A stretch of 40,995 nucleotides of DNA, from NCBI GenBank assembly GCA_016931895.1, contig JAFGDY010000133.1, positions 1-40,995 on the forward strand. Direction: 5' to 3'. Position numbers and translations under genes: made by a program. Source of the stretch: Anaerolineae bacterium (GTDB taxonomy: Bacteria > Chloroflexota > Anaerolineae > 4572-78 > J111). The notes under the pieces are model-generated. The model did not search any database. It saw only the letters and a list, made by a program, of their open reading frames with translations, and was not told the origin of the DNA. Shown piece by piece: positions 9,622-40,995 of the stretch. The stretch's first letter is position 1; every line of letters starts with the position of its first letter.

Positions 9622-9634
9622 CCATCTTTTGGGA

Positions 9635-9667
9635 AGACTTCCGAGGTTTTCAAAACCTCGGAAGTCT
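9635..9667. terminator. Palindrome between convergent genes, likely bidirectional terminator
   Basis: The arm AGACTTCCGAGGT (9635-9647) pairs with ACCTCGGAAGTCT (9655-9667), leaving a short T/A-rich middle (TTTCAAA). It sits in the 52-base gap between the plus-strand binding protein (stop 9621) and the minus-strand synthetase (stop 9674), so it could end transcripts from both sides. A CTTTT run precedes it on the plus strand, which reads as AAAAG on the minus strand. The same palindrome type is, from memory, a common dispersed repeat in Chloroflexota. Confidence 0.6.
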
Positions 9668-9673
9668 CATGCA

Positions 9674-15600: not shown

Positions 15601-18600
15601 GGCGCTGCGCAAGCTGGTTGAGGCTGTGCGCCAGCGCGTCCACCTGGAGTGGGCCGCTGAGGCGAATAGCCGTCGGCACGTTATAAGCAGCGCTGGCGGG
15701 GTCTAGCTGGTGCAGAAACCATAGTCGTTGTTGGGCAAACGAAAGAGGCAGCGCTTCCGCCGCTGAAACAGGCAGGATGGGCGGCGCATTGACGCTGCGC
15801 TGGCGCAGCAGCATGAGGGCGTTGCCCAGGCCGCTGACCGTAGGGGTCTCAAACAGAGTGGATAGAGACACCTCGACCTGGAAGGTGTCGCGCAAGCGGG
15901 AAACGAGTTGAGTTGCCAGCAGGGAATGCCCGCCCAACTCAAAGAAATTATCGTGGGCGCCGATTGGCTCCAGACCGAGCAGGTCAGCCCACCAGCCGGC
16001 CAGCAGTTCCTCGACGATAGTGCGGGGAGGGGCGAAGCCGCCGGACAGAGGGGGACGAGAACGGCCAGGCGGCGGCAGGGCGTGGCGATCCAATTTTTTA
16101 TTGGCCGTCATGGGCATGGCGTCCAGCATGACAAACGCCGAAGGCAGCATGTAATCAGGCAGCCTGTCCTGCAAGAAAGCGCGTAATTCACTGGCGGTTG
16201 GGGCCGGCGACTGGCCGGGAACGATGTAGGCTACCAACCGCTTTTCAGCGGGAATATCTTCCCTGGCCAGGACTACCCCTTCTCGCACAGCCGGATGCTG
16301 ATGCAACACCGCTTCAATCTCGCCCAACTCCACCCGGAAACCGCGAATCTTGACCTGGTGGTCAAGCCGCCCCAGAAACTCGATGACGCCATCGGCCAGG
16401 TAGCGGGCCAGGTCGCCGGTTTTATAGAGCAGAGAGGGGGGATGAGGGTTAAGAGATGAAGGATGAGGGATGAAGGATGAGGAAAGACCATTTTCATCCT
16501 TCCGCCTTCCGCCTTCCGCCTTTATCCCTCCAAATGGGTTGGGAATGAATGTTTCGGCGGTCAGGTCAGGCCGGTTGAGATAGCCCCGGGCCAGGCCGGC
16601 TCCGCCGATATATAACTCACCGGGCACACCGATGGGCACAGGTTGCAACCGGCTGTCCAAGATGTAGAGTTGCGTATCAGGCAGGGGACGGCCAATAGGA
16701 ATTGAGGCCAGGAAAGCGTCGGCGGCTTTAGCCTGATGAATAGCAGCCCAGACGGTGGCTTCGGTCGGCCCGTAAAAATTCCAGACCGGCGCGTTCCACT
16801 CAAGCAAAGCGGGCAGCATTTCGCCGGGAAAGGTTTCGCCCCCGCAAACAATGAGGCGCAGGGCCAACCCGGTGGGGGGAGTCTCTTTCTGGGCGTGAAT
16901 CAGTTGGCGCATCGCCGACGGGGTTTGATTGAGTACGGTTACTTGCTCGGCACGCAACAGGTCGTAAAACAGCGTCGGCGACTGAATGGCCTGGGTGGGA
17001 ACGATGACGAGCCGGCTGCCGCAACCGAGAGGCATCCAAATTTCCCAGACTGAGAAATCAAAGGCGTAAGAGTGAAAAACGGTCCAAACGTCCTCCTCGT
17101 TGAAGTCAAACAAGGGGCGCGTGGTTTCAAGCAGGTGTACAACGCTGCGGTGGCAAATCTGCACCCCCTTGGGCCGGCCCGTGGAACCCGAGGTATAAAT
17201 CACATACGCCAGGTTTTCAGGCTCGACCGGGCTAACCGGGTTGGCTGCGCTCTCCCGGCTGATGAGGTCCCAATCCGAGTCCAGGTATACTACCTCCGCC
17301 TGGTGTTCAGGCAGTCCCGGCCGCAATCGCGCCTGGGTAAGCAGGATGGAAACCCCGCTGTCCTCCAGCATGAAGGCCAGCCGTTGGGGATAGGCCGGCT
17401 CTAACGGCAGGTAGGCTCCTCCGGCCTTGAGGATGCCCAGCAGTCCCACCATCATTTCCAAAGAACGCTCCACGTAAATTCCTACCACCACCTCCGGCCC
17501 TACCCCCCGCGCTTGCAGGTAATGGGCCAACTGATTTGCCCGGCCATTCAGTTCGTGATAGGTGAGTTGTTGGTCAGCGAAACGCACGGCGACGGCTTCA
17601 GGCGCGCGGCCGGCCTGGGCCTCGAATAATTGATGGAGACAGCGCTGGCGGGGATAATCCATCGCCGGGAGGTCTGACCCGGCTAAATCTACCAGGAGGT
17701 GACGACGCTCTTCGTCGCTCAGGAGGGGCAGGTCAACGATAGGCTGGCGGGGATTACGCGCGATGGCTTGCAGCAGGGCCATAAATTGATGGTCTATCGT
17801 CTTGACGCTCTCCTCGGCCAATATCTCCGGGTCATAGAGCCAATAACCGGCCAGACGAGACTCGTCCGGGGCGAGGGCGAGGGTCAGTTCGGCGCCAGGG
17901 AGGGGGGCATCGTTATCCGGGTCTATACCCTGTTCGACAATGACCGGCCAGGCGAGCGGACTTGCCACTGTCTTCGGCGACGATGACAGGGTGGGGTATC
18001 GGGCTATAATATCCCGGGCATAACTCTGACGGCATCTGACTAAGGCTGTCTCTGCCTGCAAGATGTCGAAAATGTCGGCAAAACTTTGCTCGTAGCCAAT
18101 ATTTACCCGCAGCGGCGCCAGGGGGGCAAAAAAGCCGGTCAATCCGGCCAGGTCACGCCGCAGTCTGGCGTCCCTGAAGCCAAAATCAAAACAGCCGCTC
18201 CCGCCAACACGGGCCAGGTAGACGGCAAACGCAGCCAGCAGAAGCTCTCCCCGGGGCCAGGTTTGAGCAAAAGCGGCGACCTCCTCCGGGATGGATAGCG
18301 GCGTTAAGACTTTGGGAGTCTGTTTAGTTTGCTTAAGTGGGCCTCGCCTGGCATAAGGAAGGGAGACAGGCTGTAAATCGGCCAGCCGTTCCACCCAAAA
18401 CGGCTCATGCTGGCAGAGGGTCTCATTCAGCCTGGTCAGGCGTTGCGCTGTGTCCGGCGCAAGCTCGGCCAGGCGAGAGCCTTGACCCAGTTTGAGCCTG
18501 GCGACGACATCGGGTATAGAGAGCGACTGGCCGTCAATGGTCAGGATGTGATGGAAGGCGAGGTCGTAAGTGGTGGTCGCCACTTTGATTGAGTCAGGCT

Positions 18601-19527: not shown

Positions 19528-22500
19528 TTACAACTTTCTCATGATGCCGTCCAGCAAAACATCCCTGGACTTGCCGGGTTTTTCGCGCTTTTGGTCAAGT
19601 TGGCCTTGCGAATCGGCCAACTTTTGGTTCAGGAGGTGTATCCGCCGGCCTAAGACGCGAATGACCCCCTGGGCAACCTCACTCCGGTCGGCCAGCAACT
19701 CATAAAAGGGGGACTGGTCCAGGCGCAACAGGCGGGTATCCTCCAGCGCCGTGGCCGCGGCCGAATGTAACTCGGATTCAAACAGGGCTATTTCTCCCAA
19801 AATGTCGCCGTTGCCCAGTTCAGCCAGGGTTTGTTGGTCGTCATGCACCCGGACGCGACCTTCAAAGATCAGATACAAACTATGGCCCGGTTCACCTTTG
19901 GCAAAAATTGTTTCGCCACTCTTGACCTCTACCTCTTCCAGGATAGAAGCGACTTCGGCCAGCGCTTCTTCGGGGGTCTCGGCAAAAATATCTACGGCTT
20001 TCAAAGCAAAAACCTTTTCTATGGTTGATAACATGGTCACTTTGGCTCCGTTTCTAACTGCTTGCAAATGTTGCGCTACCCGCGCCACCTGGGGACTGGG
20101 GTCGTTGCAGGCTGTAAGGGGGGGCCAATATCCGGCCGGGGCCAACTTGATCAGGGCCCACAGGGCGGTTTCCCGCACCATGGGATTGGCCGCCGCGAGG
20201 GCTTTGCTGACAACCGGCGCGGCCTCCGTAAGAGAGAGGTGGGCTATGGCATCCAGGGCGCAGGCTGTAATCCAGTCGCCGAGTCGGTTATCTGGTTGGG
20301 ACAGCTCGACCAGTCGCTGGGATTGGCCCAATTTTTGTTGAGGAAAAACAGCCGTTAATTGTTCCAGTCGGCGCTGGGGAGAAATCGTCTCGTCAAACAG
20401 GGGCAGTAATATCGCTTTTAATTCCGCCGGCAGCAAAAGGTCAATGACTTCCAGGGCATAGGCTCTTTTTTCAGCCGAGCTATCCCGCAGGGCCTCTTGA
20501 GCCTGTAGAATTGAGGCCGAGTCGTGTACAAAAGAAAGCAGCAAAAAAAGACAGGCCTGGTTTTGCGCCAATTCATGATGCAGGGCGCGCCGGAGGGGTT
20601 TTAAGATCTCGTCTTCACCCAGGTCGGTCAGGCTCATCAGCAGCCAGGTGGTGTCGGCGACTTCTTGCTTGAGACGGTCACGAATCAAGGCCGCCTCTTC
20701 CGGCTCAGGGCGATAGCCGCACCCGTTCAACGATTTTAACACCTGTAGACGAACATCCCGGTCAGGATAATCCAGCTTATCGCGCAGCAGGGCGATGACC
20801 TGGTTTCCCCGCATACGGCCGCAGACCCGGGCCAGCCGGATCAAGGTCTGGCGGGATTGGCCGGGGCGGTCAAAAGCGGCCCGCACTTGTGGCAGCGCCG
20901 CCTCGCCTCCGGCTGCCAGGGCCGAAAACGCCGCGGTGGACAGGTTAGGCGTAGATAAAGCTTGAATGACCAACGGCCACAATTGCGGGGCCCGCAGTTT
21001 ACCTGCTGCCACCAGGGCGGCCCGTTGAACCACGACGTTTTCGTTTTGCAGTAAATTCTGGAGGGGTTGGTAAAAACTACTAATGCCCACTTCTCCCAAA
21101 ACTTGGGCGGCAAAGGCGCGTTCCGCGCTATCAGGCGCGGCGACGGCTTGCAACAATTGTTGCCCGGCGATGAGCACGCCCTCAATGCCGCCGCTGCGGA
21201 GCAAGCCAATCAGCGCGCCTTGCCGGATTTGAGGGTTGGCGTCATCCAGATAAGGTTTTACATTTTCCACCACGTCTGCGCCGCCCAGGGCGGCCAGAGC
21301 GCGCAGAGCCGCCGCTCGCACCAGGACCACCTGTTCATACGTCACAACCAACCTGACAGCGCGCAGGGCCGAGGTCGCCTGCCGGCGTTCAATACGCCGC
21401 AGCGCCTCCAGCCGCACTTCCGGGGCAGGATGGCGCAAGGCTCGACGCAGAAATGTGTCAAGCGACTCGTGCTCAATTTCTTCCAGGACATCCAAAGCGT
21501 AGAGAACCTGGCCCACGTGCGGACTATTAAGTCCTTGCTGCAACACGGCCAGGCTGGACCCATCGGCCAGGGCCAGCAAATCACCCTCCAGCCGGCGCCG
21601 GGTCAGGGCTTGGGTCAGAACGACGGCGTATTGCCGGTTTAATAAAAAGATAAGGATAATCCAGCCTACCAGGATGACGAGCAAAATATAATAAAGCTGG
21701 ATGGCCCCAAACGTCAGATAGTTGGTTAAAACCAGCAAGAGAATGCCGGCCACCCCCCCGGCCATGGGTTCGACGACGCTCTCCACCGCCGTTTGAACCT
21801 GTAATTGTTGTTGAGCCGGGAGGGGTTGGTAGAGAACCAGTCCACCGGAGCGGTAAATCGAATATCTGAGGCTACTGTCAAATAACTTGGCGGCGGTGGT
21901 CAGCCAGAAAATAAACGCAATTGGTCCCCAGCCGGTGCCAATGATGATGACCAATATGGCGCCGATAGCGACCATTGTCGGCAGCGAGAGTAGCCCACCC
22001 AACAAGCCGTATCGTTCCATAAACGGTCCTGAGATGAAAATCCGGCTGACCAGTGAGAGTATTCCGGCCATCGCCAAAAAGTTGCCTATAAAAGCGGCCA
22101 GTTGGTCGGCGTTGGTATAGCGAACCTGGGCGCGGTCAAAAAAGGCGTTGTCAACAACATAATAGCTGAGCAAGGCCGTGGCAGACAGGGCAAAAATTAA
22201 GACGATGTAACGATTTTTGAAGAAATCCAGGTATGATTTTTGCTCTTTGGCCGGTTGAGACCGTTGACGTTGGAGGGTATCAACGGGGGCAGCAAGCTGG
22301 TCGTGGTACAGGTGGGCAATATAGAGAAGCATCCCCAGCGAACCGGCCACGCCGCCGGCCGCCACCAGCAGCAGGTTGGGTGTGCCGATGAGGGCCACGA
22401 GGTAGCTCATGGCAAAGCCGCTGATAATCGTGGCCGTTACCTCTCCAGAACCGACCAGGCCAAACAGGCGTTTGCCCTGGCGTAAATTGAACAGCCGGCT

Positions 22501-22905
22501 GGCCAAGCCCCAAAATTCCAGGCCGGTCAGGGCCCACAACATTTCAAACCAAATCATCAGGGCTAACGTTGGCCACCTGGCCCCGGTTAGCCCCAGTACC
22601 AAGCGAAAGGCGCCCAGTCCCATCAATAACATGCTCAAGTTAGCCACCAGCAGCGCCTTAAAGGAGAGATGTTCTTCCAGCCTGGTATAGACGAATCCAA
22701 CCAGGCTGACCGCGACAGCTACGCCGATATAAACATAGGGCAAGGCCTGGGCGCTATACGCATTGATGAATAAAGCGCTGGCCGCGGCGCTGGTAAAAAC
22801 TTTGGCAATCCCTATGAAAAGCGAATGCACCAGCAGCAGCATGACCAGTTGCCCCTCGCCGGGGCGAATATTTAAGGCAACCGATAGTCTATTCAGAATG
22901 GACAT
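19528..22905 (-). CDS. Transporter-like membrane protein fused to HEAT repeats and a cyclic-nucleotide-binding-type domain
   Basis: The first ~430 of 1125 residues form about 10-12 membrane segments, with features of the MFS / ADP-ATP-exchanger-like group (LFGLVGSGEVTATIISGFAM near 170). Residues 440-940 are HEAT-like helical repeats (for example HPAPEVRLEALRRIERR and NPQIRQGALIGLLRSGG). Residues 969-1090 are a cNMP-binding beta roll (KSGETIFAKGEPGHSLYLIF, GDILGEIALFESELHSAAAT), and a short coiled tail follows. In the phosphate-binding cassette the usual Arg before S/T-A is His, so nucleotide binding is doubtful. Such fusions occur in Chloroflexota and Cyanobacteria without an assigned substrate. 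A GGGAG abuts the ATG at 22905, unusually close, but an in-frame stop lies just upstream. It lies upstream of the synthetase on the same strand and could be its exporter (inference). Confidence 0.92.
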   Translation of the reverse strand: MSILNRLSVALNIRPGEGQLVMLLLVHSLFIGIAKVFTSAAASALFINAYSAQALPYVYIGVAVAVSLVGFVYTRLEEHLSFKALLVANLSMLLMGLGAFRLVLGLTGARWPTLALMIWFEMLWALTGLEFWGLASRLFNLRQGKRLFGLVGSGEVTATIISGFAMSYLVALIGTPNLLLVAAGGVAGSLGMLLYIAHLYHDQLAAPVDTLQRQRSQPAKEQKSYLDFFKNRYIVLIFALSATALLSYYVVDNAFFDRAQVRYTNADQLAAFIGNFLAMAGILSLVSRIFISGPFMERYGLLGGLLSLPTMVAIGAILVIIIGTGWGPIAFIFWLTTAAKLFDSSLRYSIYRSGGLVLYQPLPAQQQLQVQTAVESVVEPMAGGVAGILLLVLTNYLTFGAIQLYYILLVILVGWIILIFLLNRQYAVVLTQALTRRRLEGDLLALADGSSLAVLQQGLNSPHVGQVLYALDVLEEIEHESLDTFLRRALRHPAPEVRLEALRRIERRQATSALRAVRLVVTYEQVVLVRAAALRALAALGGADVVENVKPYLDDANPQIRQGALIGLLRSGGIEGVLIAGQQLLQAVAAPDSAERAFAAQVLGEVGISSFYQPLQNLLQNENVVVQRAALVAAGKLRAPQLWPLVIQALSTPNLSTAAFSALAAGGEAALPQVRAAFDRPGQSRQTLIRLARVCGRMRGNQVIALLRDKLDYPDRDVRLQVLKSLNGCGYRPEPEEAALIRDRLKQEVADTTWLLMSLTDLGEDEILKPLRRALHHELAQNQACLFLLLSFVHDSASILQAQEALRDSSAEKRAYALEVIDLLLPAELKAILLPLFDETISPQRRLEQLTAVFPQQKLGQSQRLVELSQPDNRLGDWITACALDAIAHLSLTEAAPVVSKALAAANPMVRETALWALIKLAPAGYWPPLTACNDPSPQVARVAQHLQAVRNGAKVTMLSTIEKVFALKAVDIFAETPEEALAEVASILEEVEVKSGETIFAKGEPGHSLYLIFEGRVRVHDDQQTLAELGNGDILGEIALFESELHSAAATALEDTRLLRLDQSPFYELLADRSEVAQGVIRVLGRRIHLLNQKLADSQGQLDQKREKPGKSRDVLLDGIMRKL

Positions 22906-28917: not shown

Positions 28918-29790
28918 ATGAGTGTTTTGAAACTGGGCTTGCCTAAAGGCAGTCTCCAAGAATCAACCATAAAACTTTTTGGCAAGGCCGGTTATAAAAT
29001 ATCGCTGTCGGGCCGTTCTTACGTGCCCCAAATTGACGACCCGGAGATTGAGTGTTTGATGTTCCGCGCCCAGGAAATGGCCCGCTACGTGGAACGCGGC
29101 GTGCTGGACGTGGGCTTAACGGGCAAAGACTGGATTACCGAAAACAACGCGGACGTGGTTGAAGTGGAAGATTTGGTTTACAGCAAATCCACCTCGGATT
29201 CTTATCGCTGGGTGGTGGCTGTGCCGGAGGCTTCGGATATTCACAGCGTGAAAGACCTGGAAGGCAAACGCATTGCCACCGAACTGGTGCAGGCCACCCG
29301 GCGATATTTAGAACGGCATGGCGTTTCGGCAGAAGTGGAGTATTCATGGGGCGCAACAGAGATTAAAGTGCCGCATCTGGTTGACGCCATTGTTGAGGGC
29401 ACGGAAACCGGCGCTTCATTGCGGGCGCACCGCCTGCGGATTGTGGATACGGTGGTGGAATCAAACACCAAACTTATTGCCAATCAGCAAGCCTGGGCCG
29501 ACCGGTGGAAGCGTGAAAAAATAGAGATAGTGGCTATGCTGCTCAAGGGCGCGCTGGAAGCCGAGGGCAAGGTGGGGCTGAAGATGAACGTGCCCAAGTC
29601 CAAACTGGAACAGGTTTCCGGCCAGCTTTCGGCGCTGCACACCCCCACCATTTCTAATCAGACTGACGCCGATTGGGTGGCCCTGGAAGTGGTGATTGAC
29701 AAACAAACCGTGCGAGATGTCATTCCCAGGCTCAAAAAAGCCGGGGCCGAGGGGATTATTGAATATCCGTTGAATAGTGTGATTTATTAA
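28918..29790 (+). CDS. hisG: ATP phosphoribosyltransferase, long (regulated) form
   Basis: HisG couples ATP and PRPP, the first committed step of histidine synthesis. The 290-residue length and a C-terminal ~75-residue ACT-like domain (about 215-290) mark the long form, which is normally inhibited by histidine and needs no HisZ. Catalytic landmarks are [16 protein letters not shown] at 5-20, [11 protein letters not shown] near 64, and the PRPP loop region [20 protein letters not shown] near 155-175. The ATG is four bases after the hisI stop; a GAAAGGGA stretch inside hisI can serve as its ribosome site. The 3' end overlaps the convergent signalling gene by 35 bases. The remaining his genes must be elsewhere. 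Confidence 0.96.
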
Positions 29791-32700
29791 GCCCCAAAAG
29801 CTCTTTATTTTCCGGCACGTTTTCCAAAAACGAAGCGCGCAACTCGGGGTCGTCAATATTATCGGCATGGCGACGGAGCAGGGCCAGGCCCGTTTGCAAA
29901 ACTTCGGCGGCGGCCTCGGTATTACCGGCGGCTTGCAAAACCCGGTAAACGGTCAAATAAAGGCGAATGGGATCGTGAATGCCCAGGGTGGCGTGGGGCT
30001 TGAGCCAGGTCAAACAGACATCTATTTCGGTTTGGGCCTGGCCCACCTCGCCTTTGGCCAGTAGACAGCGGGCCAAACCGGCTCGCGCCTCAATAACGCC
30101 GGCCTCTTTGCCGGCCTGGGTATGGATGGTTTGCGCCTGCTGATAAGCATGCCTGGCTTTCACCAGGTCATTCAATCCTTCTAAAGCCAGCCCCAACACC
30201 AACCATGTATCGCCCTCAAAAGCGCGAATTTTGAGGCTCTGGAATATCTCCAACGCCTGGCCAATGTGTTCCCGGGCCGCAGCATACTCCCCGTTATCCA
30301 GGTGAATAAAGCCGACAGCCCTTAAATCTTCGGCCTCCCCCTGGTTATCCTCAATCTGCCGCCGGATGGTCATGGCCTGTTGGAGATACGTTTGAGCCGT
30401 TTGATAATGCCCCAACGCTTTATAAATCAAGGCCAGGCGGTGCAGGCAAATGGCCTCTCCGCGCCGATAACCGATCAAACGGTTGATTTCCAGAGCTTGT
30501 TGGCCTAACGTTTTAGCGCCGGCGTAATCGCCCGTCTCCTGATACCACGCCCCCAAATTACTCAGGCAAACTGCCTGGCCCGGCCAATGGCTCACCGCCC
30601 GATTGATGGTCAGGGCGCGCTGGTAATAATCTTCTGCCTGGGCGTAATCATACAATTGCCGGTGGACGGTGCCCAACGCATTGAGACACCGGGCCTGGCC
30701 ATGTTGACATTCAGCTTTGGCAAAGATATTTTGGGCAGCCTGGAGATGTTCGCGCGCCGCCTTAAAATCGCCCCGGTTAATGGCAATCTGGGCCATTTGC
30801 TCCAGACTTTCGCCCTCTAAAACAGGATTCCCGGCCTGGCGCGCCGTCTGCAAGCCTGCTTCGGCCTCGGTAGTGGCCTGGACAAAACGACTGGCCGCCC
30901 GTTCGTAAGCCGCCCGCCGGTTATGCACGGCGGACTGCCGGGCCGGATCACCAGACGTTTGGGCCAACGTTTGTAGAGTCACCAAATCGGCGGCTTGGGC
31001 TTTGCGCTGGCCCTGCCGGCTATAGATTTGTTCCCTGGCCAACAACAACTCAAATTGCTGCTGCTCAGTTTTGTCATTCCGCTCCAGGTGATCCAGGGCT
31101 TCGAGGGCCTGCGTATACCAGAACAAGGCTATGGGGCCGGCATAGCGGGCCTCGGCTTGTGTGGCTGCTTGTAAGCTATACTTTAACCTTTTTTCAGATT
31201 CCTGGGCCTGGTGAAAATGGCCGGCCAGGGCGGGGGCAATGGTTTCGGTTTCGGCGGCGTAACGCCGTTCCAGGGCCTCGCCGGCCTCGCGGTGCATCAA
31301 CCGCCGTTTAAGCCCGCCCAGATTTTGATAAAATACTTGCCGGATCTCCGGGTGTTTGAAGCGCAGCACGCCCTCGTGCGGCGTTTCTCTGATGAATTGC
31401 CGCTCCAGGGCAATATCCAGGTTTTCCAGCGCATCCCATTCCGAAAGGTCGCTCATCTCGTGCAGGTCGGCAAAGCGGAAGGTGGGGCCAAGGATGGCGG
31501 CCTGGTACAAAAGGGTTTGGGTTTCCTTGCTCAAACGATCAATCCGGCGATGGACGGCTTCGTGAATATTTTTGGGCAGGTCGCTCTCCACCACTGAGGC
31601 CAGGCGCCGCCGGGCGTCACGCCGGGCCACTACCCCCTCCTCCAACAAACCCCGGGCCACCTCGTCCACAAACAGGGGGTTGCCCTGCGTGCGGCGATAA
31701 ATTGCCGCCACCAGGTCCAGGGGCACCGGCTGCTGCCAGATATTTTCCAACATTTCCTTGACCTTGCCTTGAGGCAGTCGCTCTAAAGAAATAGAGTGGA
31801 ACGTAACATAACGCGGCAGGTCGGCCAGCAGTTGGACCAGGCACTGATTTTGGGCCGGATCATCGTTCCGGCCTGCTTTGTCTTCATTATGAAGGCCCAC
31901 CATCATCAGGCTCATCTGCGCGCAGTGACGCTCCAGGTAGTGCCAGAGTTGCAGGCTGCTCTGGTCGGCCCACTGCAAATCATCCAAAATAAACAACCAG
32001 GGCTGTTTTTGGGCGGCCCGGGCAATGATGCCGGCCACGCCGGTAATTTCGGCCGGCGGGGATTGGGCATCGGCTGTTGCTGCGGCCGGAATCAATTGAG
32101 GGATTTCGGACACAAACCGGCAGATCTCGGCTAACACCTGTTTTACCGGATCATGATCGGCCGGGGCACAGGACAAATAACTTTTCAGGGCGTCAATAAA
32201 AGGTTGGTAGGCCGAATATTTTTTTGACCGGCAGCAATGGCCGATCAGGATGGTCGTCTGCTCAACCTGCTGGACCAGGGCCTGGGCCAACCGGGTTTTG
32301 CCTACGCCCGGCTCGCCGGTAATGAACACAAGCTGGCCCCGGCCCTGTTGGGTTTCGGCCCACAATTCGGCCAAACGCCGGAGCGGTTTTTCCCGGCCAA
32401 CCAGGGCCGGCCGGGAGTGGCGCGCCAGGGGTTCCCGGCTAACGGGCGACACAAGGGCGGCCAGGATACTGCGCACCCGGCGGGCGGTGGCGTAACGTTT
32501 GGTGGGGTCTTTATCCAACAGTTTCAGGATGAGGTGTTCCAACGAGCAGGACAGGTTGGGGTTGAGGGCGCGGGGCGATTGGGGAATACTGCGGCGATGG
32601 TGTTCCAGCACTTCCTCATCGCTGCCTTCAAAGGGGCGCACGCCGGTGAACAATTCGTACATCATCACGCCCAGGGCGTATAAATCGGTGCGGGCGTCAA

Positions 32701-34657
32701 TGGGGTGGCCCAGCACTTGCTCCGGGGCCAGGTAGTGGGCGGTGACCAAAGCCAGGGGCACGTCAAAATTAAGCAACGATTTGCCGCTTTCCAGGCGGCC
32801 CAGGCCAAAATCGCTGATCTTTACCCGGCCGGCCAGCAGCACGTTTTTGGGCTTGAGGTCGCCGTGAATAACGCCGTGGTTATGGGCATATTCCAGGCCC
32901 AGGGCAATGTCTTGGGCAATGCTCAGGGCCAGGTCAAAGGGAACCGGCTGCCCGCCGCCCTCGTCAATCAAGTCGCGCAGTAGTTTGCTTTCAACCAACT
33001 CCTCAACCATGAACGAAAGGCCGTGTTCTTCGTCGCAATCATAAACGTTAACAATATTGGGGTGATCCAGTTCAACTATCTGGCGGCCCTGGTCCAAAAA
33101 TTGCTCAATGGCTTCCTCGCTAAAAGAGGCCGATAGAATTTTAATGGCCACCGGCTGGTTAAGGCGGGTGTCGGTGGCTCTGAACACCGTGCCCAAAATA
33201 CCCTCGCCAATTTTGTCTTCAATGTAGTAACGGTTTTTTAAGGTTTGGCCGGGCAGGTTCAGGGTTTCGCGCACGCGCAGAGCGTTGAGGGCGGAATGGA
33301 CCGAGGGGTAGATGGCAAAAAAGTCAAGATAGCCGGCCAGTTCAATGAGCTGCTGCACGTTGATGGAGGGGCCGGCCAAAGCCAGGTGCGCGCCCCTGGT
33401 TTCTTTGCGAAACCTGACCAGCGCCCTGAGTCCGGCCACTTGCATCAATTCCACCTCAGACATGTCAATGATCAGTTGAGTGGGCCAGCCGTTTTCCACC
33501 AATTCGGCCAACTGTTGTTTCAATTCGGCCACCACCTGCTCGTCAAAAATGCCGGTGGCTTTTAAGATGGCGGCTTTGCCGCCGGGTACCTGTTTTAGTT
33601 GGGCGCTTTGGGTGGGGGTGAGGTCAAACATGTGGCCTTCCTGGGCAATCATCACGTTGACCGGCTTTTGCCCGGGATATTGATTTTGCTGGAACTTGAG
33701 GGTGTCGGCCAAAATTTTTTCCAGGTCCTGGTCGGTGTAGGTGGGATCGTAGTGGAAGAGCAGCAGGTTTTCAACGCGGGCCGCCTGGGCCATCTCCACG
33801 CCCATAAACGAGGAACTGTGGCCCCAATCCTCTTTTTCGTCAGACTCGCGCTGGGTAAATTGGGCGTCAAAAATAAGCACGTTGGCCCCGGCAAAAAAGT
33901 CAAGATAGGGCCGCAGGTCGGCCCCGCTGGGGTAGGCCGCATCGCTGGCGTAAACAAATACCTTGTCTCCTTTTTCAAAGCGAAAAGAGTAGGCGTCGCC
34001 GGGGTGATGGTTGCGGATGGTGTGGAGGCGCAGGTCGCCAAACTCAAGCGGCTCGCCCGGCTCCAGGTGGATAAAGGTTATTTCGGCCTGCATGTAGTCC
34101 AGCGACACCGGGAAACTGAGTGGCTCTTGCTGCCGGCGCAAAGCCGCTTCCAGATCATGCACGCCGTAGATAAAGATTTTGTTGCCGGGGATAAAGGCGG
34201 GCCGGAAAAAGGGAAACCCCTGGATATGGTCCCAATGGGGATGGCTGAAGAACAGGTGGATCACGCCCTGGCCCTGGCCCCACACGCCCTGCATCAACTC
34301 CCGGCCCAATTCGCGGATACCGGAACCGGCGTCAATGATGAACAGGTCGTCGTCTGAACGGATTTCGATGCAGGGGGTGTTGCCCCCGGCCGTCATGCTG
34401 CCCAACGGCGATAAACCATCCAGGTAGGTTTCAATAATTTGGCGACGTTCCTGTTGCAACCGCAATAAGCCCGTGTGAGTGTGCGTGGGGGCAATGACCA
34501 TTTGGTCATCTAATACCGCGGCAATGAGTTCTTCTCTAAATGTGCCGCTTTCCACTTTGGAGATATTGAGGATGGCCGAAACAATTTTCTCCCGCACTTC
34601 CTCCGGCCGGATGGGGGTGGGAACGGACCCCCGCGCTCCCCAAATTTTTACTCTCAT
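29756..34657 (-). CDS. Five-part signalling protein: MBL fold, STAS, Ser/Thr kinase, AAA-type ATPase, TPR
   Basis: One 1633-residue chain joins five modules. Residues 1-340 are a metallo-beta-lactamase fold with the metal motif [14 protein letters not shown] near 135-148, and [11 protein letters not shown] and [10 protein letters not shown]. Residues 356-469 are a STAS anti-sigma-antagonist-like domain ([20 protein letters not shown]). The kinase spans 478-745: GEGILGTVF glycine loop, VAIKIL lysine, [11 protein letters not shown] near 597 (HGD in place of HRD), KISDFGLG near 614. A predicted STAND/AAA ATPase spans 760-1080 ([12 protein letters not shown] near 784, [14 protein letters not shown] near 892). 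TPR repeats fill about 1250-1600 (for example [18 protein letters not shown]). The kinase-AAA-TPR order is known from bacterial STAND-type kinases; the MBL and STAS front end is unusual. No membrane segment is seen. ATG 34657 follows AGAGG. Confidence 0.93.
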
Positions 34658-34752: not shown

Positions 34753-35838
34753 CTACTGCACTTGCTCAAGATTAGCCCAGGGAACAAAATGCTCTTGCTT
34801 ATCTATGGTGACATAAGCCCCCGGCGCAACCACCCCACCGGGGACAGGCTGCGGTTCTGCCGGCATAGAGGCAATATGGCCGGTGACGCCCAATAAGCTT
34901 CCCCGCGTAATGCGCACCCGGCTGCCTACCTTAATCTCCCGCGCCGGCTGCGCGCCGGTTGCGTTGGGCAAGGCCAGGCCACTGGTGGTGGCTAAAATAA
35001 CCGGGGGCGCTGCCGGTTGGCCCTGAACTGATGAAGCCAGGCCAGGGGTTTGGCCCCGCATGGAGACGTGCCGCCCGTTTAAGGCAGTGAGCAAGGCAAA
35101 GGTGTAAGCCGACATTGGCGCGTGGCCAAAACCTTCCGTAGCCACCACCCGCACTTTAACCGGCGGGTCTAAATTTAGGAGCGCGGCATTGATACTGCCC
35201 ACTATAATGCCCCGCACCTGCATGGCTTCGGCCCGGCGCAGCAGGGTTTCGTCCACCGAACGCCCGCCTACCAGAATGGTCTGCTCAACACCCTGGTTCA
35301 AGGCCCCGGCCGGGAGCGACTCAAAAGGCGAGGCGGCCAGCCGGTGCAGCCGGCCGTAGGCTTCGCCGCCAAAACCGCAGGCGGCCTGGATCATGGCCCC
35401 GTGAGCCTCAATAACCACTCCCCGGTAGGGGATGATTTTGGTCACTACCCCGTTAATGAACGCCTGTATCTCGATGATGGTGCGTTCTGTTTCCAAAAGA
35501 ACCCAGCCGGGACCAACTGCCGCAATGTAACCGGCTGCCGGAGCGCGGGCGCTGCGCTGCAAAAAGGGCAAACCACCCCCGGCCACGGCCATAACTTCTT
35601 TTGCCTTCACCCAGTCGCCCACGGCTTTGAGCATTACCCGGCTCATATCCACCTCGGGCTGGGCCAGTTGTCGGGCCACGTCAATGATGCGGTAACGGTG
35701 GGGCAGCTCAACGCGGGCCACCACATCAAGGGCCTCTACCTGCTGGCCGCGCTGCGCCAATACCTCTCCGTTTGCGGGGAGGGTGCGATTAATCATGATG
35801 CTGCTATCGGCATTAATTGTTCTGCCCGGAAGCTGCAT
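34753..35838 (-). CDS. Barrel-like/KOW-like protein of the MutL-like operon, function unknown
   Basis: The 361-residue protein starts at ATG 35838 after GGAGG and overlaps the end of the MutL-like gene by 26 bases. Its N-terminus (LPANGEVLAQRGQQVEALDV) resembles the barrel-sandwich-hybrid (biotinyl/RnfC-like) fold. A second hammerhead-like stretch (GYIAAVGPGWVLLETERTII) follows. A Rossmann-like middle (about 180-250, GGRSVDETLLRRAEAMQVRG and IIVGSINAAL) leads to a C-terminal KOW/SH3-type beta barrel (IKVGSRVRITRGSLLGVTGH and FVPWANLEQVQ). No transmembrane segment is evident. I recognise no named family. The gene overlap and order suggest it works with the MutL-like ATPase. Confidence 0.85.
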   Translation of the reverse strand: MQLPGRTINADSSIMINRTLPANGEVLAQRGQQVEALDVVARVELPHRYRIIDVARQLAQPEVDMSRVMLKAVGDWVKAKEVMAVAGGGLPFLQRSARAPAAGYIAAVGPGWVLLETERTIIEIQAFINGVVTKIIPYRGVVIEAHGAMIQAACGFGGEAYGRLHRLAASPFESLPAGALNQGVEQTILVGGRSVDETLLRRAEAMQVRGIIVGSINAALLNLDPPVKVRVVATEGFGHAPMSAYTFALLTALNGRHVSMRGQTPGLASSVQGQPAAPPVILATTSGLALPNATGAQPAREIKVGSRVRITRGSLLGVTGHIASMPAEPQPVPGGVVAPGAYVTIDKQEHFVPWANLEQVQ

Positions 35839-37588
35839 GCCGCCCTCCTATTTCTGCCGACCATTGTTTCAAACGCTCCTGCCGCATAGTATCATCCCGG
35901 GGTAAACGTAACGGGCGTCCCCTGGCGTCAATGATAATGCCTAAAACGCCTCCTTCCACTTCGGCCAGCGCCCCTCGCCCCCGCTGGCCGATCATGTTGA
36001 AATTATTGGTGGGCCGTATCTCCAGGGTGGCTTTGCGACCGGCCGGCAGGTCAAGCACCTTGATAGAGCCGTAAGGTATTTCTGTTTCCAGCGGGTCGCC
36101 CTCGCCGTAATCAATTTTAAGATTCAGCGCGGGTTTGCCGGGGGAACCGTGGCCGGCCGGCGCTACCACCGTGCCCAGGTTCAAAAAGGCATGCCGGACC
36201 ATCACTTCCACCGCCGCCACCGGCTGCGCTACGGCCACAGCGCCCAAAATATTGGCCAGGCCGTTGGCGTCCAGGGCCAGGCTGGCCACACCCCAGGGTT
36301 CAAGCGCGTCTAACAATACCAGCGCCGCCTGGTAAACCTGAGGCGTTTGGGTCAGGGGACGGCCCGCCCCCACCAGCAAATTCCACTGCACATCGCGCCG
36401 GCCGGTTGAGGGCTGCAAGGGCCAACCGGCCCTGGCCTGCTCTACCACTAACCGCAAAGCTTCCCTGGCCACAGCAAGTTCAATAAATAATTCTTCCTCT
36501 GTGGTGGGGATGCTGGCGGGCTGTAAACATTTATTCAACAATTGATGGCGCAATTCTGCCAGGGGCAGATCGAAGGGCAGCCAACGCCGAATTTTTTCCA
36601 GGGGGACAATATTCAAGAGAGACGCCAGGCTATGGCCCACGCCGGCGTCGCTGCGAACGGTAGAGCCTCGAACGTCTTGGGCCTGGGTGGAAATCATGGT
36701 TGCGCCGCTGCCAATGTTGGCCCCCAGCACGTTGAGGTGATTGTGTTGGCCAATGTAGGTGATTGCTTTTTCAAACGATTTGCTGGCCAGGGCTGGGGGC
36801 AAGCGGGACCAATTCTGTAATTTCTCAAAGCCGGGCAATTGGAACAGTTTCCGTTGCAGGTAAAGATTTTCTAACTCCACCTGAACGCTCGCCAGGTTTT
36901 CGGCATCCAACGTGGGGCGGATGTTGGCAATGGTTCTGAGCCAGGCCACCGCGCCCAAAATTTCGGACACGCGGGCGTGGGTATCAATATTTCCGGCAAA
37001 AAGGATGTCCGGCTTGCGTTTGCCGGGCAGCACTTGCAGGGCCATGGAGATAACGTTGGCCATCTCAATAACCGGACGTTCGGCCCCGCCATCCGTACCG
37101 CCGGTGAGCAGAATAACTTCGGGCGGGTCGGCCTGGAGGGTTTGCACCTGGGCTTCGGCGCTGCGCCGGCGGCTGCGGCGGTCGCTGTCCAGGGATAATT
37201 CGGCCGTAATGTGGGTGTAGGTGGTAGCTGCGGCCCGCCGGGCGCTGGCCAGGGAAATATCCTGCATTAAACCGGCCAGGGCCACCGCCAACGGCGGGCC
37301 GGCGCTGGACACCATCACAAAAACGTCTACGCCCTGCCGGCCCGCGCCGCGCGGCGTAATCGGCCAGCCGCCGGGAGCCAGCAGGGTGCGGCCTGTTTCT
37401 TTTTCTATTTGGCGGGTTGCTTCTTGGATGCCCAGGGTAATATCCCGCCAGGGTGGGCCATAGGTGCTGGTCGCCTGCCCCGTAGCCAGCAGGCGATGTT
37501 GGCCATCAACAACTTCAATAAGCGCCGTTGTAGTGGTGGTGTTGCCACAATCAGCCGCCAGAATGCTTTCTATTTTTGAAACGGTCAT
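35813..37588 (-). CDS. MutL-like (glutamate mutase L family) ASKHA ATPase
   Basis: The 591-residue protein has the GlmL/MutL family landmarks: the phosphate-1 motif ILAADCGNTTTTTALIE at 9-25, VSSAGPPLAVALAGLMQDIS near 93, ILLTGGTDGG near 160, and LGANIGSGATMISTQ and SDAGVGHSLASLLNI near 290-325. In clostridia, MutL is linked to reactivating B12-dependent glutamate or ornithine mutases. This protein is over 100 residues longer than those, and no mutase subunit is nearby. The start at ATG 37588 lacks a strong ribosome site. It lies 81 bases downstream of the membrane-protein gene and overlaps the barrel/KOW gene. It is therefore more likely an ATPase serving the membrane operon than a mutase chaperone (inference). 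It is not the mismatch-repair MutL. Confidence 0.87.
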   Translation of the reverse strand: MTVSKIESILAADCGNTTTTTALIEVVDGQHRLLATGQATSTYGPPWRDITLGIQEATRQIEKETGRTLLAPGGWPITPRGAGRQGVDVFVMVSSAGPPLAVALAGLMQDISLASARRAAATTYTHITAELSLDSDRRSRRRSAEAQVQTLQADPPEVILLTGGTDGGAERPVIEMANVISMALQVLPGKRKPDILFAGNIDTHARVSEILGAVAWLRTIANIRPTLDAENLASVQVELENLYLQRKLFQLPGFEKLQNWSRLPPALASKSFEKAITYIGQHNHLNVLGANIGSGATMISTQAQDVRGSTVRSDAGVGHSLASLLNIVPLEKIRRWLPFDLPLAELRHQLLNKCLQPASIPTTEEELFIELAVAREALRLVVEQARAGWPLQPSTGRRDVQWNLLVGAGRPLTQTPQVYQAALVLLDALEPWGVASLALDANGLANILGAVAVAQPVAAVEVMVRHAFLNLGTVVAPAGHGSPGKPALNLKIDYGEGDPLETEIPYGSIKVLDLPAGRKATLEIRPTNNFNMIGQRGRGALAEVEGGVLGIIIDARGRPLRLPRDDTMRQERLKQWSAEIGGRHAASGQNN

Positions 37589-37669
37589 TTGGCTAGGCGT
37601 AGCAGAAAAAAGATTTTTAAGTGATTATCACGGCTAAAACAATTGTCACCGGCCTAACTAACCTGGGCG

Positions 37670-38362
37670 TTATCCGCCCTGTCCCCAAAAATTGGCCAGT
37701 AAGTTGGCGGTATCGGCCAAAAACTGTAAACGGGAGATAAGCAAAGCCACCCGCGAATTGACGGTATTGGCAAATAAAGCGCCCAGAGTAAAAATAATCA
37801 CCAGACGCCCCATGCCCGCCAAAAATCTGACCAGGCCCTCACGCAGGCCGCCCCAAAAACCATACGCTCTTACAGCAAAGGTAAAGTAAAAAAATACGCC
37901 CAACGTGCCCAAGATAATGATGATGTTATTTAACCATTGCACCAGGCCCACTTCGGTTTCGGTATTGGGGTAATGGTTAGGGTTGAGCGACAGGCCGGCC
38001 GTGGCCGCCACCTGGGGTAACAACGTGCCAAACAACGCGCCGCCAACAGCCAGGGCCACCCCTACCCCTAACACAAAAGCCAGGGTTATACTGCCCAACA
38101 CATTGCCGACCTCCCCCTGAGCCGGCCGAATTTTAAATATGAGCAAAAAACACAAAAACAAGGCGGGCAATACGCTGACAATATGGCCGGAAGTTAAGGT
38201 GGGAATAAAAACCTGATGCCAGACAACCAGGAGGGCGTATCCCACGGCTACCCCCACAAAGATGTGAGCCGCCAGCTTAAAAAGAGCGTTGTCGCCAAAA
38301 ATATAGCTAAACACCATTAGGGTAAGCACGGCGGCAATAACGGAGAAGAGTATTTCCGGCAA
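37670..38362 (-). CDS. Polytopic membrane protein of the MutL-like operon
   Basis: The 230-residue product has about six membrane segments: 1-20 (PEILFSVIAAVLTLMVFSYI), 30-52 (KLAAHIFVGVAVGYALLVVW), 60-77, 88-113 (GSITLAFVLGVGVALAVGGA), 145-168 (NNIIIILGTLGVFFYFTFAV) and 180-205 (AGMGRLVIIFTLGALFANTV). A TTG start at 38362 is supported by AGGAG about nine bases upstream; the TTG directly follows the stop codon of the preceding gene, so the two are coupled. No catalytic or transport motif is recognised. It probably forms a membrane complex with the upstream P-x-W-L protein. Confidence 0.85.
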   Translation of the reverse strand: MPEILFSVIAAVLTLMVFSYIFGDNALFKLAAHIFVGVAVGYALLVVWHQVFIPTLTSGHIVSVLPALFLCFLLIFKIRPAQGEVGNVLGSITLAFVLGVGVALAVGGALFGTLLPQVAATAGLSLNPNHYPNTETEVGLVQWLNNIIIILGTLGVFFYFTFAVRAYGFWGGLREGLVRFLAGMGRLVIIFTLGALFANTVNSRVALLISRLQFLADTANLLANFWGQGG

Positions 38363-40995
38363 TTAAGTGGTCTCCTCTGCTTGCTTTTCCGGTTCAGGGG
38401 AAGAGAGTCGGGGCATCCAGCCGGCCACAATCCCGGCCACAATCAAGACGATGATGAGCAAATGGGCAATGCTCTGGCTGTCTAACATTTGGCGGGCCGG
38501 GCCAAACTGCTGGCGGCTGGCCTCAATGGCTGCCGCCCCGTTGATCCCCGCTATCAAACCGTCTAACTGGCCGCTGTGGCGATAGGGCTGCAAAAACGGC
38601 GCGGCGGTGGCGCTGGTGGCGGCCAATAAAAATTGTTTATCCTGGCCGAGGGAAGAGACTATTTCCATTTGTTCAACCCACCACTTAACCGTGGCCGGGT
38701 TGTCGGCCAGAGTCACCAAAAGGTCAATCTGATGCAGGTTATGGACGTTGCCCCAATCGCTTCGATTCTCAAGGGATACGCCCTCCTTAAAATCCTTGAT
38801 GGTGGAAAGCTGTTTCCGGCCGGTAGCCAGCTCGCGCACAGCCACCACCTGGCCCGGCAGATAACCCAGGTTGATCACCTCAACGCCATACGCATCATCA
38901 CGGTTATCCAACAGGGTCTGGGCCAGGGCTGCTCCCTCCGGCTCCAGGCTGACCAGGATAACGCGCATCCCTTGCCCTCGCAGCCGGCCAATGATGGCCT
39001 CGGCCAGCGGTTGCATTTCGCCCTGGGTGGCTGTTGAAAAATCAAAAGAAACCAGGGCCACCGCGCCCGGCTGTTGCCGGTCAATAATGCCCAACTGCTC
39101 GCTGATCATCTGACGCCGCCGGTCGCCCAAAACATCACTGACTTCGGGCGGGGGTTCTGTCCAGGGTGTTGTTTTGGACCAACCCGGCCACAGGGGTAAG
39201 GCTAACAAAATAATGAACAGAATAAAAAGCCCCGTGCGAATGACATTATTTATAATAAAACGTTTATGTAGTTGCCCCGGCAAGGTAGGCAGCACGGCCG
39301 GTTGAGGGGGTTGGGTGGCAATGGCGTAAAAATCCTGGGCGGCTTGCAGCGTGGCGTCGGCGTGGCCGTTAGCCGGTTTGGGCGTGATAGTGGGGATGGC
39401 CGTTACCATTTTTTCGGCGGGGAGCAGGCCGGTTAAACCGGCCAAAACGCCGGTCGACTCGACGGCCTGCCCATCTTCGGCCTCAAGCACCATTTCGACA
39501 GTTTCAGCCGGTTTTAACGCTTGCAGCCAGCCGGGGGCCTGTCCCCGGACAGGTGAGTCTGCCCCGGACGAGGGAGGCAACGCTTGACTTGCTTTAGGGC
39601 CGCCCGGCTTTGGCTCGTCTGATTTGTGCGGGTCGGCCTTATCAATTGTGGGGGGAGGCGAAATAGGAGGGGGGGATGTAGCGGGCTTGCTTTCTTCTGA
39701 GGGCAAAACGGCTTCCACGGCTTCTGTGGCTTCGCGCAAGCCGGCCAACCAATCTTCGCCAGAAGATGGCTTGCCGGCCATATCCTCTCCGGTTTCATCG
39801 GCAGATGTTGTTTCGGGGGAGTCGAATAACCATGCCGGGAGGTCCGCTTCTTCCTCTGCCGTTTCCGCCTTTTCCGGGGTCGCTGGCTGCTTTTCTGAAA
39901 CCATTGGCTCGTCTAACGCAGACAGCCAGGCCGGTTCTTCTTTATCTGTACTTTTACCGGGTGATGAGGCGGGTGATACTGTTGGAGGGGATGTTTCCGG
40001 CTCTTCATCTTCAGCTAACCAGGGCGGCAGCGGCGGCTCTTCATCTTCATCTTCATCAGCCAACCAGGGGGTATCTGATTCTATCTCAGCCGCAGGCACT
40101 TGTTCCATCCCGGCCGGTGTTGTTTCAGATAACCATTCAAGATCGAAAGTGTCTTCAGCAGGAGAGGCTGCCGGCGGCTGTTCAACGGACGGAATCTTGA
40201 TGTCGGACAGCCAACCAGTCTCTTCAGTTTTTGCCTCGTCAACCGCTTCAACCTGGCCAATAGCTGGCGGCTCTTTTGTCACTTCTTGGGGCAATTCAGA
40301 CAACCACGCCGGCAATTCAAGCTCTTCTTCAGGGATAGGTTCAAGCGACGGTTCAGCAGGAGTTTCCTCTACCTCAGACAACCATTCAGGCATTTCCCTT
40401 TCACCGCCGGTGGCAGGCGTAACCGGGGCCGCCGGGGGGTGTTCTGCCTCTACTTCCGGCAGTTCAGATAGCCAAGCGGGTAATTCAAGTTCTTCCTCGG
40501 CAGCAGGCTCGGTAGAGAATTCGCCGCCGGGTGACTCCTCAGCCTCAGACAACGGGGCAGGCGTATCGTGTTGGCGAAGCGATAAGGTCCCGGTATCAGG
40601 CGCTTTGGGTAAATCAGATAACCAGTCCGGCATTTCCGGTTCCGCCTTAGTAGCGGATTTGGGTTCCGGGAGTGATGAGAGTAAGCCGGTATCCGGCGCT
40701 TCAGGCAATTCAGTCAGCCAGGCAGGGGTCTCCGGTTCCACTTCAGCAGCAGGTTCAGTTGGCGCTGACTCAACCTGTTCTGCCTCCGGCCATTCGGCCA
40801 GCCACGGGGGAGTATCGGGTTCCATTTCACCCTTCTCCTCAACCGGCGTCTCTTGGATCCCACTCAACCAATCTGGCATCTCCAGTTCTTCTTCGGACGC
40901 GGCTTCAGGGGACAGTGGCTCAGCCTGTTCTGCCTCCGGCCATTCGGCCAGCCAGGGAGGAGTCTCCGGCTCCACTTCGCCCTCCCCCTCAACCG
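38363..40995 (-). CDS. P-x-W-L repeat protein with two membrane segments (5' end outside window)
   Basis: The frame is open to the right edge, so the gene is partial; a GTG at 40975 is in frame but lies inside the repeat pattern. The first ~500 residues are acidic, Pro/Glu-rich and carry 16 Trp-Leu motifs, mostly P-x-W-L-x-x-L/W/D (MPDWLSGIQ, PPWLAEW, LPAWLSELPE, APGWLQALKP). A membrane segment follows (IRTGLFILFIILLALPLWPG, about 575-595 from that GTG). Then comes a ~230-residue alpha/beta domain (GAVALVSFDFSTATQGEMQP, MRVILVSLEPEGAALAQTLL, IDLLVTLAD), and a final helix (AHLLIIVLIVAGIVAGWM, about 832-855). The tail repeats resemble short linear binding motifs. I know no named family. It heads the visible operon. 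Confidence 0.85.
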   Translation of the reverse strand, partial: VEGEGEVEPETPPWLAEWPEAEQAEPLSPEAASEEELEMPDWLSGIQETPVEEKGEMEPDTPPWLAEWPEAEQVESAPTEPAAEVEPETPAWLTELPEAPDTGLLSSLPEPKSATKAEPEMPDWLSDLPKAPDTGTLSLRQHDTPAPLSEAEESPGGEFSTEPAAEEELELPAWLSELPEVEAEHPPAAPVTPATGGEREMPEWLSEVEETPAEPSLEPIPEEELELPAWLSELPQEVTKEPPAIGQVEAVDEAKTEETGWLSDIKIPSVEQPPAASPAEDTFDLEWLSETTPAGMEQVPAAEIESDTPWLADEDEDEEPPLPPWLAEDEEPETSPPTVSPASSPGKSTDKEEPAWLSALDEPMVSEKQPATPEKAETAEEEADLPAWLFDSPETTSADETGEDMAGKPSSGEDWLAGLREATEAVEAVLPSEESKPATSPPPISPPPTIDKADPHKSDEPKPGGPKASQALPPSSGADSPVRGQAPGWLQALKPAETVEMVLEAEDGQAVESTGVLAGLTGLLPAEKMVTAIPTITPKPANGHADATLQAAQDFYAIATQPPQPAVLPTLPGQLHKRFIINNVIRTGLFILFIILLALPLWPGWSKTTPWTEPPPEVSDVLGDRRRQMISEQLGIIDRQQPGAVALVSFDFSTATQGEMQPLAEAIIGRLRGQGMRVILVSLEPEGAALAQTLLDNRDDAYGVEVINLGYLPGQVVAVRELATGRKQLSTIKDFKEGVSLENRSDWGNVHNLHQIDLLVTLADNPATVKWWVEQMEIVSSLGQDKQFLLAATSATAAPFLQPYRHSGQLDGLIAGINGAAAIEASRQQFGPARQMLDSQSIAHLLIIVLIVAGIVAGWMPRLSSPEPEKQAEETT
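40774..40954. repeat. 150-base internal repeat in the P-x-W-L gene
   Basis: A 31-base sequence beginning CCTGTTCTGCCTCCGGCC is identical at 40774-40804 and 40924-40954, a period of 150 bases or 50 codons. Each copy encodes PWLAEWPEAEQ. The identity at DNA level points to recent duplication within the acidic region. Confidence 0.65.

What the first reader, a model, noticed from the sequence alone, without database searches (positions are those of the whole stretch)
34753..40995. Candidate undescribed system: P-x-W-L membrane protein, polytopic membrane protein, MutL-like ATPase and barrel/KOW protein
Seen: four same-strand genes with TAA-TTG abutment, an 81-base gap, then a 26-base overlap. 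Known: MutL/GlmL proteins are ASKHA ATPases tied to B12-dependent mutases. Here no mutase or B12 gene is visible and the partners are membrane proteins. Inference: an ATPase-driven membrane complex, with the acidic W-L motif tail recruiting cytosolic partners and the barrel/KOW protein acting as adaptor.
Basis: partly seen in the sequence, partly recalled or inferred. Interest (0 to 1): 0.7.

Follow-up and report, generated by a model that had tools for sequence, protein, structure and literature searches.

The report
Chloroflexota MutL-type ATPase and membrane operon
A set of genes kept together across much of the bacterial phylum Chloroflexota pairs an ATP-binding protein, related to helpers of vitamin-B12 enzymes, with a membrane complex and a long tail of repeated short motifs, apparently for a job that nobody has described.

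Summary
In detail: four minus-strand genes with the stated spacings. It is only part of the unit: the window is a whole contig that breaks inside the P-x-W-L gene. The rest lies on contig C256 of the same genome (small ORF, DUF6754, six-TM protein, start of the P-x-W-L gene; 79-nt overlap). The order DUF6754 - 6TM - PxWL/TM/alpha-beta/TM - 6TM - MutL - barrel/KOW (c1) recurs across Chloroflexota. MutL occurs in 178/301 genomes; DUF6754 in 67, of which 66 have MutL, always under 8 kb away when on one contig. c1 was found in 37 of 39 MutL genomes and convincingly in none of 20 MutL-less ones. It is not a glutamate-mutase helper: GlmE is in 1 of 40 carriers, and that genome has a separate glmS-glmL-glmE 480 kb away. 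Most likely a membrane-anchored ASKHA ATPase complex with c1 as its cytosolic partner and the P-x-W-L tail as a multivalent docking strip. The motif resembles the FtsZ C-terminal peptide. Binding, ATP turnover and cellular function are untested. I found no description of it in the papers searched.

The parts
38363..40993 (-). c2: P-x-W-L protein, 5' end cut by the contig edge (continues on C256 = L073). Acidic disordered tail, TM, Rossmann-like alpha/beta domain, TM
37670..38362 (-). c3: six-TM membrane protein, TTG start abutting the c2 stop; directly upstream of MutL in 21 other loci
35813..37588 (-). MutL-type ASKHA protein (PF13941 over residues 9-465) with a C-terminal extension carrying the DARGRP signature
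34753..35838 (-). c1: barrel-sandwich domain, swivelling beta/beta/alpha domain and C-terminal KOW/SH3-like domain

Best explanation
This is the 3' part of an operon of at least seven genes encoding a membrane-anchored complex around a MutL-type ASKHA nucleotide-binding protein. SHOWN by sequence: conserved order, co-occurrence, domain content and predicted membrane topology. INFERRED: the DUF6754 protein, c2 and two six-TM proteins (c5, c3) form a membrane platform. DUF6754 shows a globular domain to the cytosol; c2 shows one to the outside and a long acidic disordered tail to the cytosol. MutL binds, and probably hydrolyses, ATP and works with c1 as one cytosolic unit, its DARGRP C-terminal domain being the likely contact. 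The P-x-W-L tail is a multivalent docking strip whose copy number (0 to 49 between species) sets how many copies of a cytosolic partner, most simply MutL-c1 itself, gather at the membrane. The nucleotide cycle of MutL would load and release that partner, as in other ASKHA proteins. The cargo or process served is not identified.
For: Order DUF6754-c5-c2-c3-MutL in at least 17 of 39 loci plus the own genome across two contigs, often with overlapping or abutting genes. 66 of 67 DUF6754 genomes have MutL and all 51 same-contig pairs lie 3.5-7.6 kb apart. c1 found in 37 of 39 MutL genomes, adjacent in 31; the only hit in 20 MutL-less genomes is a 44-residue match at E 6e-4; c2 domain in none of those 20. 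ASKHA phosphate and adenosine motifs kept in most MutLs; D, R and W of the C-terminal extension in 30 of 30. Topology by K/R counts.
Against: No interaction, ATPase or localisation data. Nucleotide motifs are weakened in some lineages. MutL+c1 occurs without the membrane genes in many lineages and c1 relocates in six genomes, so the platform is not obligatory. The P-x-W-L array is nearly absent in some c2 orthologues (L043, L045, L062), so docking by it cannot be essential everywhere.
Confidence: 0.42

Rival explanations
1. Division- or cytoskeleton-linked scaffold: the P-x-W-L motifs copy the FtsZ C-terminal peptide, so c2 gathers proteins that bind that peptide (FtsA, or MutL as a second FtsA-like ASKHA protein) at the membrane.
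For: Motif consensus [DE][LVI]P[DA]WL[RQK] over 348 sites against FtsZ ends DDLDIPPFLRNR and, in this genome, DNLEVPAFLRKR. The FtsZ peptide is a short linear motif bound by FtsA and many others (PMC12607630). FtsA in 38 of 40 genomes.
Against: W in place of F throughout; MutL shows no FtsA domain in Pfam; no operon member lies near ftsZ (places); the likeness may be convergence. Nothing tests binding.
Confidence: 0.13
2. ATPase-driven export, lipid or envelope-assembly machine: DUF6754/c5/c2/c3 form a transport or assembly unit powered by MutL, with c1 coupling them.
For: Four membrane proteins in one operon, one cytosolic and one outside domain predicted, ASKHA protein in the same operon.
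Against: No transporter family recognised in Pfam; ASKHA proteins are not known transport motors (own knowledge); MutL+c1 exist without the membrane genes.
Confidence: 0.15
3. GlmL-like reactivating chaperone for a B12-dependent mutase (glutamate, ornithine or methylmalonyl-CoA mutase).
For: PF13941 membership; a B12-binding mutase subunit lies divergently upstream in three loci, with MeaB among two neighbours; methylmalonyl-CoA mutase in 34 of 40 carriers.
Against: GlmE in 1 of 40 carriers, and that genome has its own GlmL beside its mutase; methylmalonyl-CoA mutase no nearer than about 60 kb; GlmL forms a separate, long branch; NCBIfam scores far below cut-offs.
Confidence: 0.07
4. Two independent units that happen to be neighbours: a cytosolic MutL+c1 pair and a separate DUF6754/c5/c2/c3 membrane complex.
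For: MutL+c1 occurs without the membrane genes, and c1 relocates in six genomes.
Against: The membrane genes almost never occur without MutL (1 of 67, in a fragmented assembly) and were always close when on one contig. P-x-W-L proteins of two architectures (c2, c13) both sit beside MutL.
Confidence: 0.12

Closest known systems
GlmL / MutL accessory proteins of glutamate mutase (PF13941; NF040745; TIGR01319)
   Same: Same Pfam family; ASKHA motifs; homologous over residues 9-465
   Different: No mutase partner, C-terminal DARGRP extension, separate branch in the tree, scores far below the GlmL cut-offs, membrane-gene neighbours
DUF6754 (PF20539) proteins
   Same: The DUF6754 gene of this operon, on C256, is a full-length member
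   Different: The family has no known function; here it is tied to MutL and c1
FtsZ C-terminal peptide / FtsA (ASKHA) membrane tethering
   Same: Acidic-aliphatic-P-x-aromatic-L-R/K motif; an ASKHA protein in the same operon
   Different: Trp rather than Phe, tandem copies in a membrane protein, MutL not an FtsA family member, FtsA present as well
NqrA/RnfC barrel-sandwich domains, RraA/UPF0107 swivelling domains, NusG/SPT5 KOW domains
   Same: c1 resembles each in a separate part, Z about 8 to 10
   Different: None of the listed proteins has this combination, and identity is low; a shared fold does not show a shared function

Membership tests
PF13941 MutL superfamily (window MutL) | Pfam score over curated cut-off | tested here: met
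   197 bits against 27
GlmL (methylaspartate mutase accessory protein) | NCBIfam equivalog score over cut-off | tested here: not met
   77.6 bits against 475
GlmL (methylaspartate mutase accessory protein) | Encoded beside glmS/glmE | tested here: not met
   GlmE over cut-off in 1 of 40 carriers, about 480 kb from the operon; positive controls: Prevotella and G174
GlmL (methylaspartate mutase accessory protein) | Groups with GlmL in a tree | tested here: not met
   Two GlmL rows form one branch, 100/100, apart from all operon MutLs
GlmL (methylaspartate mutase accessory protein) | Reactivates a B12 mutase | not testable with these tools
   needs biochemistry
ASKHA ATPases | Phosphate and adenosine motifs | tested here: met
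   D 24/30, G 27/30, T 28/30 in motif 1; D 23/30, G 26/30 in motif 2; adenosine G 30/30. The window has N for D in motif 2. Hydrolysis not tested
FtsA | FtsA domains in MutL | tested here: not met
   Only PF13941 matches the window MutL; FtsA itself is encoded elsewhere in these genomes
FtsZ C-terminal-peptide-like motif | Consensus D/E-aliphatic-P-x-F-L-R | tested here: inconclusive
   Same pattern but Trp for Phe
FtsZ C-terminal-peptide-like motif | Binding to FtsA or another peptide-binding protein | not testable with these tools
   needs complex prediction or binding assays
DUF6754 (gene on C256) | Pfam score over cut-off | tested here: met
   142 bits against 27
KOW/NusG-SPT5 domain (c1) | Pfam cut-off or clear fold match | tested here: inconclusive
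   Pfam 14.9 bits against 27, and at residues 35-57 rather than the C-terminus; profile hits to SPT5/NusG chains E 7e-7 to 0.02; fold Z about 8 over about 50 residues 298-361

The most novel reading that the evidence does not exclude
A phylum-specific membrane scaffold in which an actin-fold (ASKHA) protein other than FtsA works with a membrane protein carrying up to dozens of FtsZ-peptide-like motifs, a tunable multivalent hub between cytoskeleton and envelope without a described counterpart.
Probability: 0.12. Interest if true: 0.85.

Novelty: new variant of a known kind. Interest (0 to 1): 0.55.

Why it matters
PF13941 proteins are named by default as glutamate-mutase helpers (MutL/GlmL). 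Here a widespread Chloroflexota subfamily is separated from that role, given a diagnostic C-terminal signature (DARGRP), and linked to a family of unknown function (DUF6754) and a membrane complex. That makes both families testable in cultivable hosts and argues against an annotation that such proteins are likely to carry. The P-x-W-L array, 0 to 49 copies between species, would be a natural series for studying multivalent motif docking.

Tried and rejected
c2 domain against DUF6754, and c3 against c5, tested as possible duplicated pairs: no detectable homology by profile comparison. Solved-structure sequence searches gave nothing useful for c2 or DUF6754; the MutL profile gave only weak PilM hits, E 0.04, in keeping with an ASKHA fold. 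The best c2 fold matches are generic Rossmann-like proteins and are not used as evidence of enzyme activity. MutL as a stand-in for a missing FtsA: rejected, FtsA is nearly universal. SepF as the motif's partner: no hit in 40 genomes. Plasmid search: DUF6754 no match; MutL only GlmL-type hits. Gene families beside the operon ends: none recurs widely. Literature: no paper in the library mentions DUF6754 and none found describes this operon; the library lacks most subscription journals. Other phyla could not be sampled; 14 control genomes gave no DUF6754.

Full report
WHAT IS THERE. The window is a complete 40,995-base contig (C133 of G000). The four reported genes exist as described: c2 38363-40993 (open at the contig edge), c3 37670-38362, MutL 35813-37588, c1 34753-35838, all on the minus strand, with spacings 0 (TAA|TTG), 81 and -26 nt. 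MutL matches PF13941 over residues 9-465 (197 bits). c2 and c3 match no Pfam or NCBIfam family; c1 has only sub-threshold hits.

THE MISSING HALF. DUF6754 occurs once in the own genome, on contig C256. That contig (L073) carries a 108-aa small ORF (8248-8574), DUF6754 (8571-9353), a six-TM protein (9376-10032) and the start of the P-x-W-L gene, which runs off the end. Its last 79 nt match the minus-strand start of the window at 98.7%. The two contigs are therefore very probably adjacent and broken inside the repeat. c2 would then be about 1,730 aa with roughly 38 W-L/I motifs. Adjacency rests on the overlap and the gene content, not on reads.

CONSERVATION. The window's MutL has matches in 178 of 301 Chloroflexota genomes. 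Loci were fetched from 40 genomes, plus L032. In the 39 with a called MutL gene, c3 lies directly upstream in 21 and the order DUF6754 - c5 - c2 - c3 - MutL holds in at least 17. c1 lies directly downstream in 31 (28 by gene call, three more by profile search). Six genomes of four families (G164, G059, G068, G116, G108, G148) carry c1 elsewhere. Of the last two, one contig ends just after MutL and one genome gave no c1 hit. DUF6754 occurs in 67 of 301 genomes, 66 of them with MutL (Fisher p about 6e-17, not corrected for ancestry). All 51 pairs on one contig are 3.5-7.6 kb apart. In 20 MutL-negative genomes the c2 domain was not found, and the only c1 hit is 44 residues at E 6e-4. Sixteen of 40 MutL carriers have no DUF6754 hit. 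Five sampled loci of three families have instead a P-x-W-L protein without TM helices (c13), and several others have only MutL+c1. A small protein (c7/c31, about 80-110 aa) precedes DUF6754, usually overlapping it by 1-17 nt.

NOT A MUTASE HELPER. Glutamate mutase E passes its cut-off in 1 of 40 carriers. That genome, G174, has a glmS-glmL-glmE set about 480 kb from the operon; its GlmL is 461 aa. The Prevotella GlmL, also 461 aa, lacks the DARGRP sequence and lies in the textbook glmS-glmL-glmE-ammonia-lyase order. In a tree the two GlmL rows form one branch (100/100, length 1.62) apart from all operon MutLs. The literature names GlmL/MutL a chaperone that reactivates glutamate mutase (PMC4682846). 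Methylmalonyl-CoA mutase is in 34 of 40 genomes but no nearer than about 60 kb to MutL. A B12-binding mutase subunit lies divergently upstream in three loci of one family. This is the only mutase signal and it is not general.

ANATOMY. MutL keeps ASKHA phosphate and adenosine motifs in most members. Its most conserved residues are in the C-terminal extension ([IV][IV]DARGRP and a Trp), with D, R and W in 30 of 30. c1 was modelled at pLDDT 87. Residues 44-120 resemble RnfC/NqrA barrel-sandwich domains (Z about 7.8, 64-68 residues). Residues 148-284 resemble a swivelling domain (UPF0107 Z 10.1, 109 residues, 2.5 A; RraA Z 9.6, 128 residues, 3.6 A). Residues 298-361 resemble KOW/SH3 domains (Z about 8, about 50 residues). 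The c2 C-terminal part was modelled at pLDDT 86 as TM, Rossmann-like alpha/beta domain, TM, with no specific relative. Counts of K+R around the TMs put the DUF6754 domain in the cytosol (0.6 before and 3.4 after TM1). They put the c2 domain outside and its tail inside (2.4 before and 0.6 after TM1).

THE P-x-W-L TAIL. Copy number runs from 0 to 49 and is far above shuffled expectation in most tails (window 12 against 0.22). Over 348 sites: D/E at -2 in 67%, L/V/I at -1 in 70%, then P, D/A (64%), W, L, and R/Q/K in 63%. FtsZ in this phylum ends in sequences such as DDLDIPPFLRNR, and DNLEVPAFLRKR in this genome. The likeness is clear but could be convergence. FtsA is nearly universal in these genomes and SepF was not found. 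c13 proteins end in basic tails with aromatic residues (for example KKRGIFEAIRDWLSR), and some MutLs in KRGFFRRK-like tails. I read these as possible membrane-binding ends, which is inference.

MECHANISM AND LIMITS. The best-supported reading is a membrane-anchored ASKHA complex: MutL+c1 as the conserved cytosolic core, DUF6754/c5/c2/c3 as the membrane platform, the P-x-W-L tail as a multivalent docking strip. Shown: co-occurrence, order, topology by rule, folds by prediction. Inferred: complex formation, ATP turnover, docking and any cellular role. In the genomes where c1 has moved it is followed by a receiver/histidine kinase and a receiver protein (pattern, domains for L084). In four of these loci a further run of shared genes follows. 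By my reading of the L084 sequences, two of these are ATP synthase subunits a and c. This hints at a signalling or energy link and was not tested.

NOVELTY. The families are known by name only (MutL, DUF6754) or are unnamed. I found no paper on this operon or on DUF6754 in the open library. Because a divergent member of a known ATPase family is at its core, I class it as a new variant of a known kind; a categorically new machine is the less likely reading.

Noticed in passing
window 40915-40995 and L073 12619-12697: Assembly breaks inside the P-x-W-L repeat; several relatives also have DUF6754 and MutL on different contigs (for example G012, G023, G050, G204, G272), probably for the same reason.
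   Followed up: partly
window 29756-34657 (-): 1633-aa fusion of metallo-beta-lactamase fold, STAS, Ser/Thr kinase, AAA ATPase and TPRs, 95 nt downstream of c1 on the same strand; not next to c1 in the close relative L032.
   Followed up: partly
window 9674-19378 (-): 3234-aa protein with formyltransferase, four condensation and two adenylation domains: a nonribosomal peptide synthetase.
   Followed up: no
window 19528-22905 (-): 1125-aa protein joining a TLC ATP/ADP transporter domain, HEAT repeats and a cyclic-nucleotide-binding domain.
   Followed up: no
L084, L085, L086, L087, L088, L089: Six genomes carry c1 away from MutL, beside receiver-domain signalling proteins; in L084 these are followed by genes I read as ATP synthase subunits.
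   Followed up: partly
L034 9900-10295, L037 3473-3868, L038 2955-3377: A B12-binding mutase subunit is divergently encoded upstream of the operon in three loci of one family.
   Followed up: partly
L057 8598-10772; L048, L049, L052, L053, L059 MutL C-termini: These MutLs have extended C-terminal tails ending in basic aromatic stretches; that of L057 also carries P-x-W-L motifs of its own.
   Followed up: no
L047, L054, L055, L060, L072 (c13 genes): P-x-W-L proteins without TM helices beside MutL, ending in basic tails with aromatic residues that might bind membrane; some show a longer motif such as LIDxxxLPxWL.
   Followed up: no
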